A model generated the notes under the pieces. That model was not told the origin of the DNA. It saw only the letters and a list, made by a program, of their open reading frames with translations, and ran no database searches. Source: Streptomyces qinzhouensis (lineage in GTDB: Bacteria > Actinomycetota > Actinomycetes > Streptomycetales > Streptomycetaceae). Taken from it: 64,000 bases of DNA. Numbering within the stretch: the first letter of the stretch is position 1; every line of letters starts with the position of its first letter. Positions 55,971 to 63,052 of the stretch are shown here, piece after piece. The translations under genes were made by a program, and so were the position numbers. Location of the stretch: the NCBI RefSeq assembly GCF_007856155.1, contig NZ_CP042266.1:2852001-2916000 (forward strand). Reading direction: 5' to 3'.

Positions 55971-56387
55971 TCAGGAAGCGCACTGTTTCAGCATCGTGTT
56001 CCGGTCGGGGGCCGTGACGGGCAGCTCGTACTTCCGCGCCACCTGCGCGAACCGCACGGCGTACGCACAGCGGACCGGCTTGTTCGGCGGGAGCCAGGAC
56101 GCCGGGCCGGAGTCGCGTTTGGCCTGGTTGGCCGGGCCGTCGACCGGGAGCAGATTGAGCGCGTCATTGGCGAATCGTTCCCGCTGGTCCGAGGTCCAGC
56201 GCGCGGCACCCATCCGCCAGGCGTACGCCAGCGGCACGACATGGTCTATCTGCACCTCGGCGGCCTTCGTCTTCTTCCAGACGATGTCCTTGCCGGTGTA
56301 CGGATCGGCGAGGGTCATCGCCACCACGACACAGTCCGAACCGTCCCGGAACCGCAGTTCGCGGCCGTCGCGGCGGATGAGGTCGTT
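55971..56387 (-). pseudogene. C-terminal half of the HNH-nuclease gene split by the transposon
   Basis: Read on the minus strand from 56387, this piece encodes 138 residues starting NDLIRRDGRELRFRDGSDCV and including the HNH core VQIDHVVPLAYAWRMG and NLLPVDGPANQAKRDSGPAS with PNKPVRC. It is the C-terminal part of a secreted DUF1524-type endonuclease. Upstream codons (MCIEARREIEITR) come from transposon sequence and give a fortuitous short frame. The N-terminal half is at 62690-63052. Joining them at GCGGGT restores an intact 259-residue protein that aligns from end to end with the paralogue at 61837-62607. Confidence 0.9.
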
Positions 56388-56402
56388 GCGGGTTATCTCT
56401 AT
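56388..56402 (+). repeat. Left end of the transposon: core plus inverted repeat
   Basis: GCGGGTTATCTCTAT. The first six bases are the repeated core; TTATCTCTAT is the inverted copy of ATAGAGATAA at the right end. Confidence 0.9.
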
Positions 56403-56423
56403 CTCTCTCCTAGCCTCGATGCA

Positions 56424-56493
56424 CATGAGGCACAGCCGTAACCCCTTCTTGTCCCTCGCAGTTATCAGTCATGCCATGAGGCACATGAGTGAC
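56424..56493 (+). repeat. Left subterminal repeats
   Basis: CATGAGGCACA occurs at 56424-56434 and again at 56475-56485; the second copy extends to GAGGCACATGAGTGAC (56478-56493). GAGGCACATGAGT is found inverted at 62602-62614 near the other end, at a similar distance from its tip. Confidence 0.8.
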
Positions 56494-56516
56494 ATCGGAG
56501 ACAGGAAGCAGATCCC

Positions 56517-57638
56517 GTGACGTTACGTGCAGAGAAGGCCGTGTCGCCTACCACCGGCGGGATCACCTGGCTTCTGGTCGACGAGGAGACTTACGCGCCT
56601 CACCCCGAGGCCAGCGAGTTCTCCCTGTACCTGCGCGGAGCCGGGCGGTCACCGCAGACCCAGCGCGCGTACATCCCCAGAATCGGCCGCTTCCTCAACT
56701 GGTGCGCAGAGCGGGGTACCGACTGGAGGACCGTCCGGCTCGGGGACATGAGCCTGTTCAAGTTCCACGTCGAGCGGACACCGACCCAGTACGGGCGGCC
56801 TCCGTCCGGCAAGACGGTCAACGCCACGCTCACTGCGGTGTGTGAGTTCCTCCGCTTCTGCGCGGTTCAGGGACATGTGGGTCACGAAGTCGCCGCGCGT
56901 CTCAGCGAGCCGCGCTTCCTCGCCCACGCTCCGGCCGGCTTCGATCCCGGCGAGGGCGGCCAACACCTGATGGTCAAAGCCCGCGCCCTGAAGGCGCCGG
57001 AGATCGAGCGGGCACCGCAGACGCTCACCCGAGCCCAAACGGATCAGATCCTCAACGCTGCTCGCACCGCGCGTGACCGGCTGCTGCTGACCGTCCTTCT
57101 GGAAGCCGGCCTCCGCATCGGCGAAGCCCTCGGACTCCGGCGTGAGGACATGCACCTGCTCCCCGACTCCACACACCTGGGCTGCCGAACCGGTGGCGCG
57201 CACCTGCACGTCAGGCCTCGGCAGGACAACGTCAACGGGGCACGGGCCAAGGCCGGGCGCCCTCGCATGGTTCCGCTGACGCCAGAGGTGGTGCATCGGT
57301 ATCGCGATCATCTCGCCGAGCGTGAACAGGTGGCCAGCTCCGCCGCCTGTGACTACGTCTTCGTCAATCTCGTCGGCGTGCACGCGGGACGGCCCCTGTC
57401 GTACTCCAACGCCAAGCAAGTGGTCGAACGGATCGGGCGACGCTGCGGTCTGACCGCCCGGCCGCACATGATGCGGCACACAGCCGCCACCCGCTGGATT
57501 CGCAACGGGGTCGCTCCGGACGTCGTGCAGACGCTCCTGGGCCATGCCTCGTCGGCGAGCACAGCCGTGTACGTGCACGCCCAGGACGAGGATCTCCGCG
57601 CGGCCGTCGACAGCCTCGCTTCGGAGCTACTGCGATGA
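56517..57638 (+). CDS. tnpA: Tyrosine recombinase TnpA
   Basis: A 373-residue integrase. An N-terminal SAM-like core-binding domain ([38 protein letters not shown]) precedes the catalytic domain: Arg in [12 protein letters not shown] near residue 200, [15 protein letters not shown] near 317 with the HxxR pair, [16 protein letters not shown] near 340 with the nucleophile Tyr. GTG 56517 follows AGGAAG. Codon 3 is TTA (56523-56525), which requires the bldA tRNA. The stop overlaps tnpB by four bases. It is the first of two recombinases that act together in Tn554-type transposition. Confidence 0.93.
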
Positions 57639-59839
57639 CCATCGCACCTCTCCGCTCGGCTGTCGTTGCCTCCCACTCAGTTGAATCGCATTGGCCGTCA
57701 TGGCTCGCGGCGCGCCTTCCGTCGGGCTGGCGGGCAGACGAGTGGGACCCCGTTCAGGCACTCTTCACTGCCGATCCTGGTAACCCGACGACCAGCGTGT
57801 TCGTCTGCTCCGTGGCCTCCTGCACCACCCATGTGGCGAGCAACGGCTCCCGCTGCGACGCCTGCCGGAAAGTCCGATACCTCCTGGGGAACCCTGCGGA
57901 CTTCGACACCACGCACACCCCGGATCCGTCCCGCCGCAGGCCCAACGCCTCTGCGAACGGGGCGATGCCCGGCGTCTCCCAGCTCTCGCTCGCGGGTGTG
58001 CGCCCCGCGGTCCGCCAGGAGCACTTGTACGGGCTCCAGCAGCGCGACGACGCCGGAATCAGCCTGGTCCCCCAGCGGGTACGCCGCATCGTGGCCGGCC
58101 TCCCCGCCGGACTCGGCTCGCTCCTCGACCTGGACGCCTCCTTCCCCTCAGGGCTTCCAGCCGCGACCTCCGGCGTCCTGAACGGTGTTCTCCAGCACGT
58201 CCGACGCGCACGCATCGAGTTCGAGGGCACCGATCCGACCTCGGGCGACGTCTGGGAGTGCGCTCTCATCGGGCTGACCGCAGGGCGCGGTCGCAAGTAC
58301 ACCGCTGTCCACGGCGACATCGACTTCCGACCGGTACGGCAAAGTTGGCTGCGGGAACTGGTCAAGGAGTACGGACGCACGGCACGCCCCAACGTCATGG
58401 ACCTACGGCAGACCGTCTACGCGGCGACCATCGCGTCCTCCGCGCTGGCAGGCCGCCCCCACGGGGATGAGCCGGGGCGCCTCGCCATGGCCGACATGAA
58501 CGCCGTAGTGGACCTGCTCCGGATCACCAAGCGTCCCGAGGACGGTCACGACTACTCCACCAGCCACCGCAGAGCCCTGCTCCGGCACTGGCGCACGTTC
58601 CTGGACTACGCCCGTCAGGCCGGATTGATGGACCACGTGCCCGGCGGATTCGCGCTCAACCCCCGTTTCCACAGCATCGCCGCCGTGGAAGTGACCGAAG
58701 ACGATCTCGGCCGTGCGATCCCCGAGCACGTCATCGCCCAGCTCGACGTGCACCTCGGTCTACTGGGCACCTCGACGGGGTATGCGAGCGGCGGCTGGAC
58801 GGCCGCCGACTTCGCGCGGATGTACCAAGTCGTCTACGCGGTCCTCCGGGACACCGGCCGCCGGCCGGGCGAGGTCACCAGCCTGCGCCGCGACTGCCTG
58901 GAGCGGGTCGACGGCAAACCGACGCTGATCTACGACAACCACAAACGGCGACGCCACGGCCGTCGGCTGCCGATCTCGGAGAGCACCGCCCAGCTGATCG
59001 AATCCTGGCAGAAGGAGCTCGATGCGCTACCGGCCGTACCGGCCTGCGCCCAGTGGCTGTTTCCCTCGCCCGGACAGCGCAACCGTGCGCGCCGCGGGCA
59101 TCTGAACACTTCGCACTTCTGCAACCGGATCTTCCGGAACTGGATCGACGAACTGATCCCAGACCTTGTGGACGACCGGCTCGACGAGGACGGCGCCCCG
59201 CTCGCCTACGACCGGACCCAGGTCGTCCCGTACGGCTTCCGCCACGCTTACGCCCAGCGCCATGCGGACGCGGGCACTCGCCCCGACGTCCTGCGGGAAC
59301 TCATGGACCACCGTTCACTGGACGTGACCATGGGGTACTACAAAGTCTCCCTCAGCCGAAAGCAGGAGGCCGTACGCACGGTCGCGGCACTCGCCGTCGA
59401 CCGGCACGGAGCAGCCCGCGGATTCGGCGATGCCCTCGCCTACGAGGTGGAAGGCGTCGGGGTTCCCTACGGCGGCTGCACCGAGCCGAGCAACGTCAAG
59501 GCCGGCGGCGGGCACTGCCGCATCCGCTTCCAGTGCGCCGGATGCGACTTCTACCGCCCCGATCCCTCCTACCTCCCCGCCCTGGAACAGCAGGTCGCGG
59601 ACCTGCGAGCCGACAAGGAAGCCGCCCTCGCGATGGAGGCCGCCGACTGGGTCGTACGCAATCTCGATGACCAGATCCGCGCCTACTCGAAGTCAGCCGG
59701 CGAGATGCGGCGGAAACTCGACGCCCTGCCCGCCGAGGAGCGGGCCGCCGTCGAATCCGCCTCACGCGAGCTGCGCAAGGCACGTTCGGCAGCGGCCTTC
59801 ATTCCGCTGCAGGCGCTGACGACACGGAGCTCCGAATGA
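57635..59839 (+). CDS. tnpB: Tyrosine recombinase TnpB
   Basis: A 734-residue recombinase. The N-terminus holds a Cys cluster ([22 protein letters not shown]), the catalytic part shows [17 protein letters not shown] near residue 405, [17 protein letters not shown] near 530 and [20 protein letters not shown] near 555 with the Tyr, and a second Cys region ([20 protein letters not shown]) is followed by a charged coiled coil. This long layout is that of Tn554 TnpB. ATG 57635 overlaps the tnpA stop and its own stop overlaps tnpC, so all three are coupled. Confidence 0.92.
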
Positions 59840-60435
59840 GAATCCCTGCTGCTTCCGGCGGCAACGACCGAAACGCCCGGGTCGAGCGCCTGCGCGTCAG
59901 CCGTGCCAAGGACAGTGAAGACAAGACCAAGCGTGCACTCGAAGTCGTGGACGGTCTTCTCCGCTCGGGACGACGGATCACCGTCGCCCAAGTGGCACGG
60001 GAAGCCTCGGTGTCCACGTGGTTCGTCTACAACCGGCCTCAGGTGCACCTGGCCGTTCAGGACGGCATCACCGCCCAGCGAACGCAAGGTCGCCAGAACT
60101 CCCGCACTCCAGAAGCGTCCCAGGTGTCTCCGGCCGGGTTGCGGACGGACCTTGCACTGGCCCGCGAAGAGATCAAGGACCTCAAGAAGGAGCGCGATCG
60201 GCTCCGTAACCGGGTCAGACTGTCTCTCGGCGCCGAATTGGAGGGCGTGAACCAGCACGAGCTGATCGAGCGGGTACAGCAGATCGAGCGGCGGAATACC
60301 GCACTGGAGCAAACGCTGTCAGAGGCCGGGGTTCGGATCGCCGCCCTGGAGGGCCAACTGCGTGAGGCGGAGGACGACCTCACCGCCGCGCGAGCCAGTC
60401 TGCGTCGTGCCATGCGGGCTGTTCCGTCCTCGTAG
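59836..60435 (+). CDS. tnpC: Accessory protein TnpC (DUF6262-like)
   Basis: A 199-residue basic protein with a helix-turn-helix-like part (RITVAQVAREASVSTWFVYN) and a long C-terminal coiled coil (LALAREEIKDLKKERDRLRN, RVQQIERRNTALEQTLSEAG). Its size and order match TnpC, which in Tn554 sets orientation and efficiency of insertion. The start overlaps the tnpB stop by four bases. Confidence 0.87.
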   Translation: MRIPAASGGNDRNARVERLRVSRAKDSEDKTKRALEVVDGLLRSGRRITVAQVAREASVSTWFVYNRPQVHLAVQDGITAQRTQGRQNSRTPEASQVSPAGLRTDLALAREEIKDLKKERDRLRNRVRLSLGAELEGVNQHELIERVQQIERRNTALEQTLSEAGVRIAALEGQLREAEDDLTAARASLRRAMRAVPSS

Positions 60436-60505
60436 CTCGCGTTCTGCCGCCACCCGCGGCTGTCCGGTTTGAGTGTCGTCTGCCGGACAGCCGTGAGAGG
60501 CGGAA

Positions 60506-61763
60506 TCAGAATGGAGGATCGTTGAAGAGCGAGCCGGTCCAGACAGGTGAGACAGGCTCGGAATCGCACCGCTGAAGGACTACGACAGCGTCGTTGACGC
60601 GCCCCAGGCCGATGAGGTGGCCGGCCAGGTCGTTGCTGTTCGCCGGGGCGTGCTGTTCGAGAACGGCAACAGCCTCCTCGGTGCGTCCGGCGCCGGCGAG
60701 CAGCTCGGCGATGTGCGGCGCCGCGTAAGAGGTGGATCCCTCGGGGTGGGAACAGGCCTGTGCGACCGCTACGTCGACGCCGTCGCGGGCGGCAATCAGC
60801 GGCAACCGTATCCAGTACAGATCCCAGTCCTCCTCACCCCCGCGGGCAGCGGCGAGGGCATCGAGGTGCGCCAGGCCGTCCTCCGGGCGGCCTTGTGCGA
60901 GGCACAGGTTGGACCACGTATGCAGGATCCAGTCGTCCCCGTTGTGGGCCTCGGTCAGGACCCGCATCACATCGACCGCTTCGCTCCCTCGGCCATGCTG
61001 TGCCAGGAGCTCCGCCAGTCGCACTGTGCCGTGGCACCGGAAGTCCTGCGAGTCGCCCGACTGCCGGTACACGGCGATCGCGCCTTCCACGTCACCCGCG
61101 CTCCTCCAGTACCTCAGCCAGACACTGCGCGGCGTGACCGAGACGATCGGTCACCACGTACGCGCGCAGTTCCTCGACCCGACCGTGTCTCGCCTACAGG
61201 TCGGCCAGCTGATCCCGGTTGTTGACCGAGGTGATGTGCCGGGTGCGCAGCAGGGCGATCGCTTCGTCGACGCGGCCCTGGCGTTCGCGGATCGTGGCAA
61301 GAAGCCCGATGGCGTCGTCGGGGTCGAGACCGCGGCAGCACCATGGACTGTCACACCGGTGCTGGTCCGGGATGCGGGTGGCCAGCAGCCCGGCGACGTC
61401 TTCGTCCCGACCTGCTCCTTCGGCGATGTCGACCAGAGCGGCGGCGAGAAGCCGGTCTTCGATTCCGGCGCTCAGCCGAGTAACCGCCTCGTCCGTATGT
61501 CCGTGCCGCGCCAACAGGCGCGCGAAGTACTCCAACGGGAGCCCTCCCGTGCTCGCGTACGGCAGGGCCAGCGCAATCGCTTCCTCTGCCCGCCCTCAGC
61601 TTTCCAGCAGCTGCGCCCAGGCCCGCGCGCAGAACCATTCCCCGCGACGGGCTTGGGCCTCCACCTCTTCACTGTGGCCGAGCTCAAGAAGCCGGGAGAC
61701 CAGGAGTGGAGAAATACAACCGGACAAGGTCCGGGCCTGACGGTCCAGATCGAAGGCGTCCAT
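60506..61763 (-). pseudogene. Decayed tetratricopeptide-type cargo gene
   Basis: One TPR-like gene reading leftward from ATG 61763 (MDAFDLDRQARTLSGCISPL) broken three times. A TGA interrupts AWAQLLES-*-GRAEEAIALALPY near 61597, a TAG follows RDQLADL near 61200, and an extra base near 61090 shifts the frame between LAEVLEERG and DVEGAIAVYRQSG. The frames on each side are otherwise continuous and of the same style (helical repeats GRVDEAIALL, GRTEEAVAVLEQHA). The intact protein would have been about 415 residues. Such proteins appear widely in Streptomyces without known role. Confidence 0.85.
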
Positions 61764-61836
61764 GACTGCGCACCTTAGCCACCACGGCCGAGAGGGACCC
61801 CGCAACGCCGAGGCCGGGACAGCCATGGGGATGCTG

Positions 61837-62607
61837 TCAGCCCTGGCACTGCTTCAACATCGTCGCCCTGTCCGCAGCCGTCACCGCAAGGTCGTACTTG
61901 AGGGCCACCTGCGCGAACCGCACTGCGTACGAGCACCGGATCGACTTGTTCGGCGGCAGCCAGGACGCCGGACCGGAGTCGCGTTTGGCGGAGTTCGTGG
62001 AGCCCGAGACCGGCAGAAGATTCAGCACGTCGTTGGCCAGCTGCTGCCGCTTCTCCTTGCTCCAACGCGAGGCACCCATCTGCCAGGCGTACGACAACGG
62101 CACCACGTGGTCTATCTGCACCTCGGCGGCCTTGGCCTTTTTCCAGGCGATGTCCTTGCCGGTGTACGGGTCGTACAGGTCCATCGACACGACCACGCAG
62201 TCGGAACCCCTACGGAACTCGACGTCCTGTCCATGGAGTTTCAGCAAGTCGTTCCGGGTGTCACAACCGTTCCTCGCCAGCGGCACCCCATCCGCCGTGT
62301 CCATCCACGCATAGCCGAACTTGTCCCGTTCGTAGCCCGTCTTCGACCCACGCCCCTTAACTGTGAGTTCTTCGACGAGCTTACGCGCGTTCGCCTTGTC
62401 CGCCTCCGACGCGAGGGCGCCGAGCCCCGGCTTCGTTCCGTCCGGATTCGTCAGCGGGCTCGCCGCCCGCCCGGCAGCTGCGTCCGGTCCGGATCCCGCG
62501 GAGCTTCCGCCCGGCTCCAGACCATTACAGCCTGCGACGAGCGCGGCGGCAACGGTGACCGTAAGGACGACCCTCTTCCCGCGCGTGCACAGCGGCCTGT
62601 GACTCAT
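61837..62607 (-). CDS. Intact secreted HNH-endonuclease-like protein carried by the transposon
   Basis: A 256-residue lipoprotein-type protein: signal VVLTVTVAAALVAGC with Cys near residue 27, a linker, then KARKLVEEL-like helices, GYERDKFGYAWMDTADGVPL, ARNGCDTRNDLLKLHG, GSDCVVVSMDLYDPYTGKDI and the HNH core VQIDHVVPLSYAWQMGA, NDVLNLLPVSGSTNSAKRDS, PNKSIRC. DUF1524-type secreted nucleases cleave extracellular DNA. ATG 62607 follows GAGAGG. It is colinear with the disrupted host copy and includes its own version of the insertion site sequence, GCDTRNDL. Whether it is active is unknown; the metal His and Asn are present. Confidence 0.88.
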   Translation of the reverse strand: MSHRPLCTRGKRVVLTVTVAAALVAGCNGLEPGGSSAGSGPDAAAGRAASPLTNPDGTKPGLGALASEADKANARKLVEELTVKGRGSKTGYERDKFGYAWMDTADGVPLARNGCDTRNDLLKLHGQDVEFRRGSDCVVVSMDLYDPYTGKDIAWKKAKAAEVQIDHVVPLSYAWQMGASRWSKEKRQQLANDVLNLLPVSGSTNSAKRDSGPASWLPPNKSIRCSYAVRFAQVALKYDLAVTAADRATMLKQCQG

Positions 62608-62614
62608 GTGCCTC
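62602..62614 (-). repeat. Right subterminal inverted repeat
   Basis: ACTCATGTGCCTC is the exact complement of GAGGCACATGAGT at 56478-56490. It overlaps the start codon of the carried HNH gene. Confidence 0.8.
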
Positions 62615-62678
62615 TCACTACGCATCGGCGACCACACCCTGCATACGCTGCGAGAACAACCCCACCACAGCGCGAACC

Positions 62679-62695
62679 ATAGAGATAATGCGGGT
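62679..62695 (-). repeat. Right end of the transposon: inverted repeat plus core
   Basis: ATAGAGATAA-T-GCGGGT. The last six bases repeat the core found at 56388-56393. Confidence 0.9.
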
Positions 62696-63052
62696 GTCGC
62701 AGCCGTTCCGGGCCAGGGGCACCCCGTCCGTACTGTCGCTCCAGGCGCGCCCGAACCTCTTCCGCTCATAACCGGTCCCGGGGCCCCGGCCCTTGGTGGA
62801 CAGCGACCCGATCAGCTTCCGGGCCGCCGCCCGGTCCCCGCCGGCGACGGGCGCGAGGCCGGGGCGGACGCCGTCGGGATTGGCGAGCGGACCGACCGCG
62901 CCGGGCCCGCTCCCCCGCGCGCCCGCCGCCTCCGGCGTCCCCTCGCTCTCGCACCCGGTGAGCGCGATAACGAAAAGGGCGATCGCATACGTTATGGGGG
63001 CCTTGCGACTGTTCTTCACCTCCGCAGCGTACTGACGGCGACGAACGCGCAC
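62690..63052 (-). pseudogene. N-terminal half of the HNH-nuclease gene split by the transposon
   Basis: 121 residues starting at GTG 63052 (or GTG 63019), with lipoprotein signal APITYAIALFVIALTGC, a Gly/Ala linker, AARKLIGSLSTKGRGPGTGY, FGRAWSDSTDGVPLARNGCD-TR. After the junction the frame enters transposon sequence (IISMVRAVVGL...) and stops at 62618. A truncated lipoprotein could still be made but it lacks the nuclease core. It continues at 55971-56387. Confidence 0.9.

What the first reader, a model, noticed from the sequence alone, without database searches (positions are those of the whole stretch)
56388..62695. Transposon splits an HNH-nuclease gene and its clean excision would restore the frame
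The two halves of one secreted HNH-nuclease gene lie at 62690-63052 and 55971-56387 with a complete tnpABC element between. GCGGGT occurs once at each junction and TTATCTCTAT/ATAGAGATAA are inverted just inside. Removing one repeat and the DNA between joins ...NGCDTR to NDL..., giving an uninterrupted 259-residue protein colinear with the intact paralogue. This defines element, target and core to the base, and suggests a reversible gene switch if excision occurs.
Basis: seen in the sequence. Interest (0 to 1): 0.9.

Follow-up and report, generated by a model that had tools for sequence, protein, structure and literature searches.

The report
Transposon replaces the gene it breaks
In Streptomyces, a Tn554-like transposon that cuts into a secreted-nuclease gene carries its own complete, slightly recoded copy of such a gene, placed right behind the broken half, and other kinds of mobile element have arrived at the same arrangement.

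Summary
In detail: a tnpABC element (56387-62695) splits a secreted HNH-nuclease gene. The repeat is 7 bp, best read as a 6-bp core TGCGGG between arms TTATCTCTAT. The predicted empty site is real: its pattern occurs in 140 of 295 Streptomyces genomes.

The interpretation misses the main point: the "intact paralogue" is inside the element. All 14 distinct genomes with a close relative have the element at the same codon with a complete HNH gene inside the end that meets the broken 5' half. The fused half stays open 23-24 codons and stops 7-10 nt before the likely cargo start in 18 of 18 loci. In 14 of 14 carrier genomes searched the cargo is the only intact close HNH gene; cargo copies lack the target core in 22 of 22.

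A different four-gene element hits the same gene about 75 codons on and does the same (3 intact loci, 1 decayed); a third does so in a DnaQ-like exonuclease gene (3 loci).

Best reading: self-replacing transposons, with the Vibrio recA mobile element as precedent. A reversible switch is not shown.

The parts
62690..63052 (-). 5' half of the interrupted HNH lipoprotein gene (121 codons, ends GCDTR)
   Evidence: same half in relatives
55971..56387 (-). 3' half of the interrupted HNH gene (138 codons plus stop; GmrSD_C/HNH_4)
   Evidence: same half in relatives
56387..56393 (+). left copy of the 7-bp repeat TGCGGGT (6-bp core TGCGGG at 56387-56392)
62689..62695 (+). right copy of the 7-bp repeat TGCGGGT (6-bp core 62689-62694)
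56393..56402 (+). left terminal arm TTATCTCTAT
   Evidence: similar in relatives
62679..62688 (+). right terminal arm ATAGAGATAA (inverted)
   Evidence: conserved in relatives
56517..57638 (+). tnpA, tyrosine recombinase (PF00589, PF02899)
57635..59839 (+). tnpB, large tyrosine recombinase (PF00589), overlaps tnpA
59836..60435 (+). tnpC-like (DUF6262), overlaps tnpB
60506..61535 (-). broken TPR-repeat cargo gene (two ORF pieces)
61837..62607 (-). complete HNH lipoprotein gene carried by the element (replacement copy; lipobox and HNH motif kept); start codon at 62607 is my choice among in-frame starts
62618..62689 (-). in-frame extension of the broken 5' half into the element end, closed by TAG at 62618-62620, 10 nt before the cargo start
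62611..62616 (-). GAGAGG, ribosome-binding-like sequence between that stop and the cargo ATG at 62607

Best explanation
A Tn554-related transposon with three mobility genes inserts site-specifically into the HNH-nuclease lipoprotein gene of its Streptomyces host and supplies a whole replacement gene. The cargo gene lies just inside the end that meets the host gene's promoter-proximal half, in the same orientation. The host promoter and the truncated reading frame lead straight into it: the fused frame is open and ends at a stop right before the cargo start, so ribosomes that finish the broken half can start the cargo (translational coupling). The cargo is recoded at the insertion site, so the element should not target itself and the occupied genome has no such target left. 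The result is allele replacement rather than gene loss. Shown from sequence: anatomy, conservation, only intact close copy, purifying selection, missing core. Inferred: transcription from the host promoter, coupling in the cell, functional equivalence and present mobility.
For: 14 of 14 distinct genomes with a close relative (window included) have the element at the same codon of an HNH gene with a complete HNH cargo at the N-half end (in L047 the other flank is off the contig). The fused frame stops 7-10 nt before a start at a fixed +82 nt in 18 of 18 type-1 loci, four of them remnants. With the other types, the stop lies between -16 and +2 of the cargo start in 25 of 25 loci in the gene's frame, 0 of 25 and 15 of 25 in the other two. 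The cargo is the only intact close HNH gene in 14 of 14 carrier genomes; other full-length paralogues are at most 41% identical. dN/dS is 0.12-0.38 over 12 cargo pairs. Cargo lacks the core in 22 of 22, while 61 of 108 listed clade-I host genes have the site pattern (rows). Three decayed copies (L131, L132, L133) keep the cargo with no tnp match in the fetched 16-17 kb. Two other element types show the same layout.
Against: In 8 of 13 loci the target is a different HNH clade (about 45% identical) from the cargo, so it is a divergent substitute. The +82 start was chosen by me for its conserved MSH/MRH beginning; other in-frame starts lie upstream (+52, +64) and would overlap the stop. The 18 loci are related, and one control frame also has a stop at +1, inside ATGA (15 of 25). 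The extension shows only a weak third-position excess (0.35 against 0.23 and 0.28), and random sequence of that composition would be open about 60% of the time. Cargo-core loss is not 22 independent events, and of the 16 host genes most like the cargo only 4 have the CGC codon and 2 the strict core. G198 is 81% complete, so its count of HNH genes is weaker. No expression or function data were found for this HNH family.
Confidence: 0.75

Rival explanations
1. Reversible gene switch: the element excises precisely in some cells, restoring the host gene.
For: Clean 7-bp repeats and symmetric arms; the Vibrio cholerae recA element was reported to excise, with a faint empty-site product (PMC4405046, passages).
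Against: The element already supplies an intact HNH gene. PMC10214605 (passages) reports no empty site for strand-biased elements and no test for Tn554-like ones. Remnants L131-L133 stay in the broken gene.
Confidence: 0.09
2. The HNH gene is ordinary accessory cargo that benefits host or element (for example a nuclease against foreign DNA), and its likeness to the target is secondary.
For: Target and cargo are often different clades, and type-1 and type-2 cargos intermix in the tree as a shared cargo pool would.
Against: It does not predict that the two HNH-targeting types carry HNH and the exonuclease-targeting type carries an exonuclease, at the N-half end, on the same strand and with the stop at the start codon. 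An automatic search flags no such layout in 36 more distant tnpABC loci.
Confidence: 0.12
3. The cargo HNH is a nuclease that promotes mobility, like a homing endonuclease cutting the empty target.
For: Cargo and target are both HNH proteins; homing genes often sit in the gene they cut (general knowledge).
Against: 21 of 22 cargos show a lipobox-like motif in the first 45 residues, so they are predicted to leave the cytoplasm. The mobility genes are tyrosine recombinases, and the third type carries an exonuclease matching its own target instead.
Confidence: 0.03

Closest known systems
recA mobile element (RME) of Vibrio cholerae S24 and the like insert of V. parahaemolyticus 090-96 (PMC4405046, PMC4334540; passages read)
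   Same: A site-specific element splits a conserved gene and carries a complete divergent copy of it (at one end in V. cholerae). The two recA fragments in V. parahaemolyticus overlap by 6 bp, and an integrase gene lies among the inserted genes.
   Different: About 30-33 kb, recA, and LexA-type regulation of the carried recA; excision and function of the carried recA were shown there for V. cholerae, not here. Here the element is 6.3 kb, has three mobility genes, sits in a nuclease gene, and has the host frame running into the cargo.
Tn554 family (tnpA, tnpB, tnpC)
   Same: Three overlapping genes, two of them tyrosine recombinases, a small third gene; one specific target gene; 6-bp core; imperfect terminal repeats (PMC10214605, passages).
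   Different: Tn554 (recalled) sits in radC, carries resistance genes and no copy of its target. A 1984 paper title seen in a reference list says Tn554 makes no target duplication; here both core copies are equal in every locus read.
Strand-biased circularizing elements (SEs) and GInts (PMC10214605; passages)
   Same: Four-gene layout like types 2 and 3, 6-bp spacer, insertion in a few chosen places.
   Different: In SEs the 6 bp at the right end come from the donor; here 19 of 19 loci have equal copies. The passages I read mention no replacement gene.
Islands in tRNA genes that restore the split gene (Islander, PMC4383910; abstract start in listing)
   Same: Integration leaves the host gene functional.
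   Different: There island sequence regenerates the target itself; here a whole separate gene stands beside the broken one.
Clostridium difficile thymidylate synthase insert (Knetsch et al. 2011, known only as cited in PMC4405046)
   Same: An insert disrupts a gene and brings another version of it.
   Different: Paper not seen; ends and mechanism unknown to me.

Membership tests
Tn554-related elements | tnpA-tnpB-tnpC order, two tyrosine recombinases, the second large | tested here: met
   PF00589 in TnpA and TnpB (373 and 734 aa), overlapping ORFs
Tn554-related elements | TnpC-like third gene | tested here: inconclusive
   199-aa DUF6262 protein in the right place; not compared directly with Tn554 TnpC
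Tn554-related elements | site-specific insertion with a 6-bp core | tested here: met
   same codon, arms symmetric round 6 bp, in 13 of 13 loci with both ends readable
Tn554-related elements | no target duplication; one flanking 6-mer comes from the donor | tested here: inconclusive
   both copies equal in 13 of 13 type-1, 3 of 3 type-2 and 3 of 3 type-3 loci, over ten core sequences; indirect, no transposition was watched
Tn554 itself | target radC (recalled) | tested here: not met
   target is an HNH lipoprotein gene; related elements may have other targets
target-replacing element (RME type) | complete divergent copy of the disrupted gene at one end | tested here: met
   14 of 14 genomes
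target-replacing element (RME type) | carried copy is functional | not testable with these tools
   only dN/dS below 0.4 and kept motifs
target-replacing element (RME type) | excises as a circle | not testable with these tools
   no reads available
reversible gene switch by excision | empty site coexists with the inserted form in one strain | not testable with these tools
   single assembly; empty-site pattern absent from G000

The most novel reading that the evidence does not exclude
Elements of the Tn554/SE recombinase group have repeatedly evolved to replace the gene they break: the host promoter and reading frame run into a recoded, insertion-proof copy. The element thereby drives its own allele into the host locus, removes the last target site (immunity to a second insertion) and takes the cost out of its own insertion. 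Two distinct recombinase modules found this at two codons of one nuclease gene, a third did so in a DnaQ-like gene, and the Vibrio recA elements would be a fourth.
Probability: 0.48. Interest if true: 0.75.

Novelty: new variant of a known kind. Interest (0 to 1): 0.63.

Why it matters
It shows how a site-specific transposon can live in a conserved gene with little harm to the host, and that this solution seems to have arisen more than once. It gives a way to find such elements from sequence alone (split gene, matching full copy, stop next to start), explains how a gene can be swapped for a divergent version at one locus, and makes the open question of how Tn554-type elements move (empty site or not, source of the core) testable on natural elements with many core variants.

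Tried and rejected
The switch idea could not be tested: no excised form can be seen in one assembly. A tandem host duplication as source of the second HNH gene was rejected: the full copy lies inside the element's arms in the loci read. That clade differences refute replacement was weighed and softened: carrier genomes hold no other intact close HNH gene, and the same lipoprotein gene neighbours clade I and clade II genes in some loci. The third paralogue is not clade II: six copies checked are 40-55% identical to clade II C-domains. Empty site in the same neighbourhood: a DNA search with the right flank (120 genomes, 97 with some match, most weak) found no listed relative match, own genome aside, holding the gene half and its right neighbour together, so the empty site is shown in orthologous genes, not in shared flanking DNA. 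Same layout elsewhere: an automatic detector flagged 0 of 36 tnpABC-type and 2 of 27 four-gene-type loci. It missed L175, found by eye, and L043; on known positives it found 11 of 12 type 1 and 3 of 3 type 2. Fetched stretches were at most 19.5 kb and some end at contig ends, so more may be missed. The fragment in G117 (72% over 140 residues) was not fetched. Plasmids: 76 records with TnpB relatives, all under 60% identity. Papers: listings of searches showed the Vibrio precedent and nothing on this Streptomyces layout; several listings were cut at 10-15 titles and the library lacks most subscription papers. The search for the HNH family's function listed nothing I could use. A promoter scan, protein folding and the large protein database were not run.
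Full report
Setting. The window lies in an 8.15-Mb single-contig genome (G000, C1:2852001-2916000). That it is a Streptomyces follows from the named relatives.

Anatomy. Along the plus strand: 3' half of an HNH-nuclease lipoprotein gene (55971-56387, minus), core TGCGGG and arm TTATCTCTAT (56387-56402), tnpA, tnpB and tnpC overlapping by a few bases (56517-60435), a broken TPR-repeat gene (60506-61535, minus), a complete HNH lipoprotein gene (61837-62607, minus), arm ATAGAGATAA and core (62679-62694), and the 5' half of the interrupted gene (62690-63052, minus).

The site is real. The pattern TGYGRCACNCGCRACGAY, which spans the predicted junction, occurs in 140 of 295 Streptomyces genomes; read backwards as a control it occurs in 11. 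It is absent from G000 and from the five other type-1 carriers among those genomes (G029, G110, G125, G267, G277). All 30 fetched matches lie in a locus with an HNH gene of this family, L183 more distant. The family has a match at E up to 1e-20 in 390 of 392 genomes.

The cargo is the finding. In 392 genomes, 62 have a TnpB relative at E up to 1e-50. The seven full-length ones at 77% identity or more (own included) are in the HNH gene with an HNH cargo. Of 14 named loci, ten show both (L047 lacks one flank); L048 is a remnant with cargo and broken half; L049-L051 are partial recombinase matches without HNH. Sixteen more distant tnpABC loci (TnpB 63% or less) have no HNH match.

Coupling. In 18 of 18 type-1 loci (14 plus the remnants L048, L131, L132, L133) the broken 5' half reads on through the element end for 23 or 24 codons and stops 10 or 7 nt before a start codon at +82, with a GAGAGG-like stretch between. 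I chose that start because it is shared and begins MSH or MRH in most; further in-frame starts lie upstream. In the second type the stop abuts the start (TAGATG) in 3 of 3 intact loci and lies 4 nt before it in a decayed one. In the third type stop and start overlap (TGATG) in 3 of 3, although one extension has another length. Overall 25 of 25 first stops fall between -16 and +2 of the cargo start in the gene's own frame, 0 of 25 in frame +1 and 15 of 25 in frame +2, all 15 being the TGA inside ATGA (or GTGA) in type 1. That the host promoter drives the cargo is inference.

Replacement. In the 14 carrier genomes searched (7 type 1, 3 type 2, 4 with decayed elements) the cargo is the only intact close member; other full-length paralogues are at most 41% identical. 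One of the genomes (G198) is 81% complete. Cargo pairs have dN/dS 0.12-0.38 (12 pairs). The Asn-Lys-Trp motif is found in 22 of 22; the IDHV[VI]PL motif in 20 (L042 and L047 differ) and a lipobox in 21. Targets belong to clade I (5 of 13) or clade II (8 of 13); cargos group with clade I, type-1 and type-2 cargos are mixed, and host genes fall among them. Cargo was therefore captured or exchanged more than once, and replacement is often by a divergent relative.

Protection of the cargo. The Arg codon in the core is CGC in 13 of 13 targets with both junctions readable (the one junction of L047 shows CGG) and CGG or CGA in 22 of 22 cargos, although CGC makes up 79 of 229 other Arg codons there. 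Of 108 clade-I host genes listed in genomes also covered, 61 have the site pattern. Against this, of the 16 fetched host genes most like the cargo only 4 have CGC there and 2 the strict core. For the type-2 site, 0 of 14 readable cargos and 3 of 13 readable host genes match. Type-3 cargos differ from their targets at the site in 3 of 3. The events are not independent, so this is suggestive.

Core copies. Both copies are equal in 13 of 13 type-1, 3 of 3 type-2 and 3 of 3 type-3 loci, over five, two and three different sequences. On the TnpA+TnpB tree the type-1 core changes at least four times (read by eye; some forks are open). The rule reported for SEs and noted for Tn554, one copy from the donor (PMC10214605), predicts unequal pairs after such changes; none was seen. 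I have no settled explanation.

Other element types. Type 2 (L135, L136, L137; decayed L134) has a 509-aa tyrosine recombinase, two large proteins without a Pfam match and a 183-aa protein, sits at about residue 193 of the HNH gene with core ACGAC[AC] and arms TTATGTYGGC, and carries an HNH copy. The window's TnpA, TnpB and TnpC find nothing there at E up to 1e-3, though both kinds hold a PF00589 recombinase. Its nearest relatives without HNH are 63-64% identical in IntA (L172, L173). Type 3 (L174, L175, L176) has a related module (40-42% in IntA) in an RNase_T/DnaQ-like exonuclease gene (Pfam run on L174 only), with arms TTATCCACGCA, and carries a full exonuclease copy. An automatic search for a split gene plus matching full copy flagged 0 of 36 other tnpABC loci and 2 of 27 four-gene loci (L174, L176), missing L175; on known positives it found 11 of 12 type 1 and 3 of 3 type 2. 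So the layout is no background effect and arose at least twice, more likely three times.

Known background. The Vibrio recA elements carry a complete divergent recA, so the kind is known. New here, as far as I found: the Tn554-type platform, Streptomyces, one gene hit at two codons by two modules, stop-to-start coupling and recoded cores. Tn554-like elements in Actinobacteria, Streptomyces included, are noted in PMC3414803 (passages). The listings of searches showed no report of this layout.

Verdict. Observation confirmed; excision switch not supported; most likely a self-replacing transposon.

Noticed in passing
window 60506-61535 (minus): A TPR-repeat gene between tnpC and the HNH cargo is broken in the window; relatives of its pieces (53-94% identical) lie in 5 of 15 type-1 loci searched, L038, L040, L043, L044 and L054.
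   Followed up: partly
L174, L175, L176: Elements in a DnaQ-like exonuclease gene carrying a full exonuclease copy with overlapping stop and start.
   Followed up: partly
L136 7674-9653: The type-2 element in G272 carries a 659-aa HEAT-repeat gene between recombinase genes and HNH cargo, in the place where type 1 has a TPR gene.
   Followed up: no
L131, L132, L133, L134: Decayed elements that keep the broken half and the carried HNH gene, so the replacement can outlive the transposon.
   Followed up: partly
PMC4334540 Table 3 (passage): The V. parahaemolyticus recA insert has four adjacent genes of about 435, 243, 674 and 650 codons and a 6-bp overlap, which resembles the SE/GInt four-gene layout; the link is my inference.
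   Followed up: no
G273 C1:4766-6568 and C1:8158176-8159978: Two equal-scoring distant TnpB relatives lie near the two ends of the chromosome on opposite strands, as terminal inverted repeats would give.
   Followed up: no
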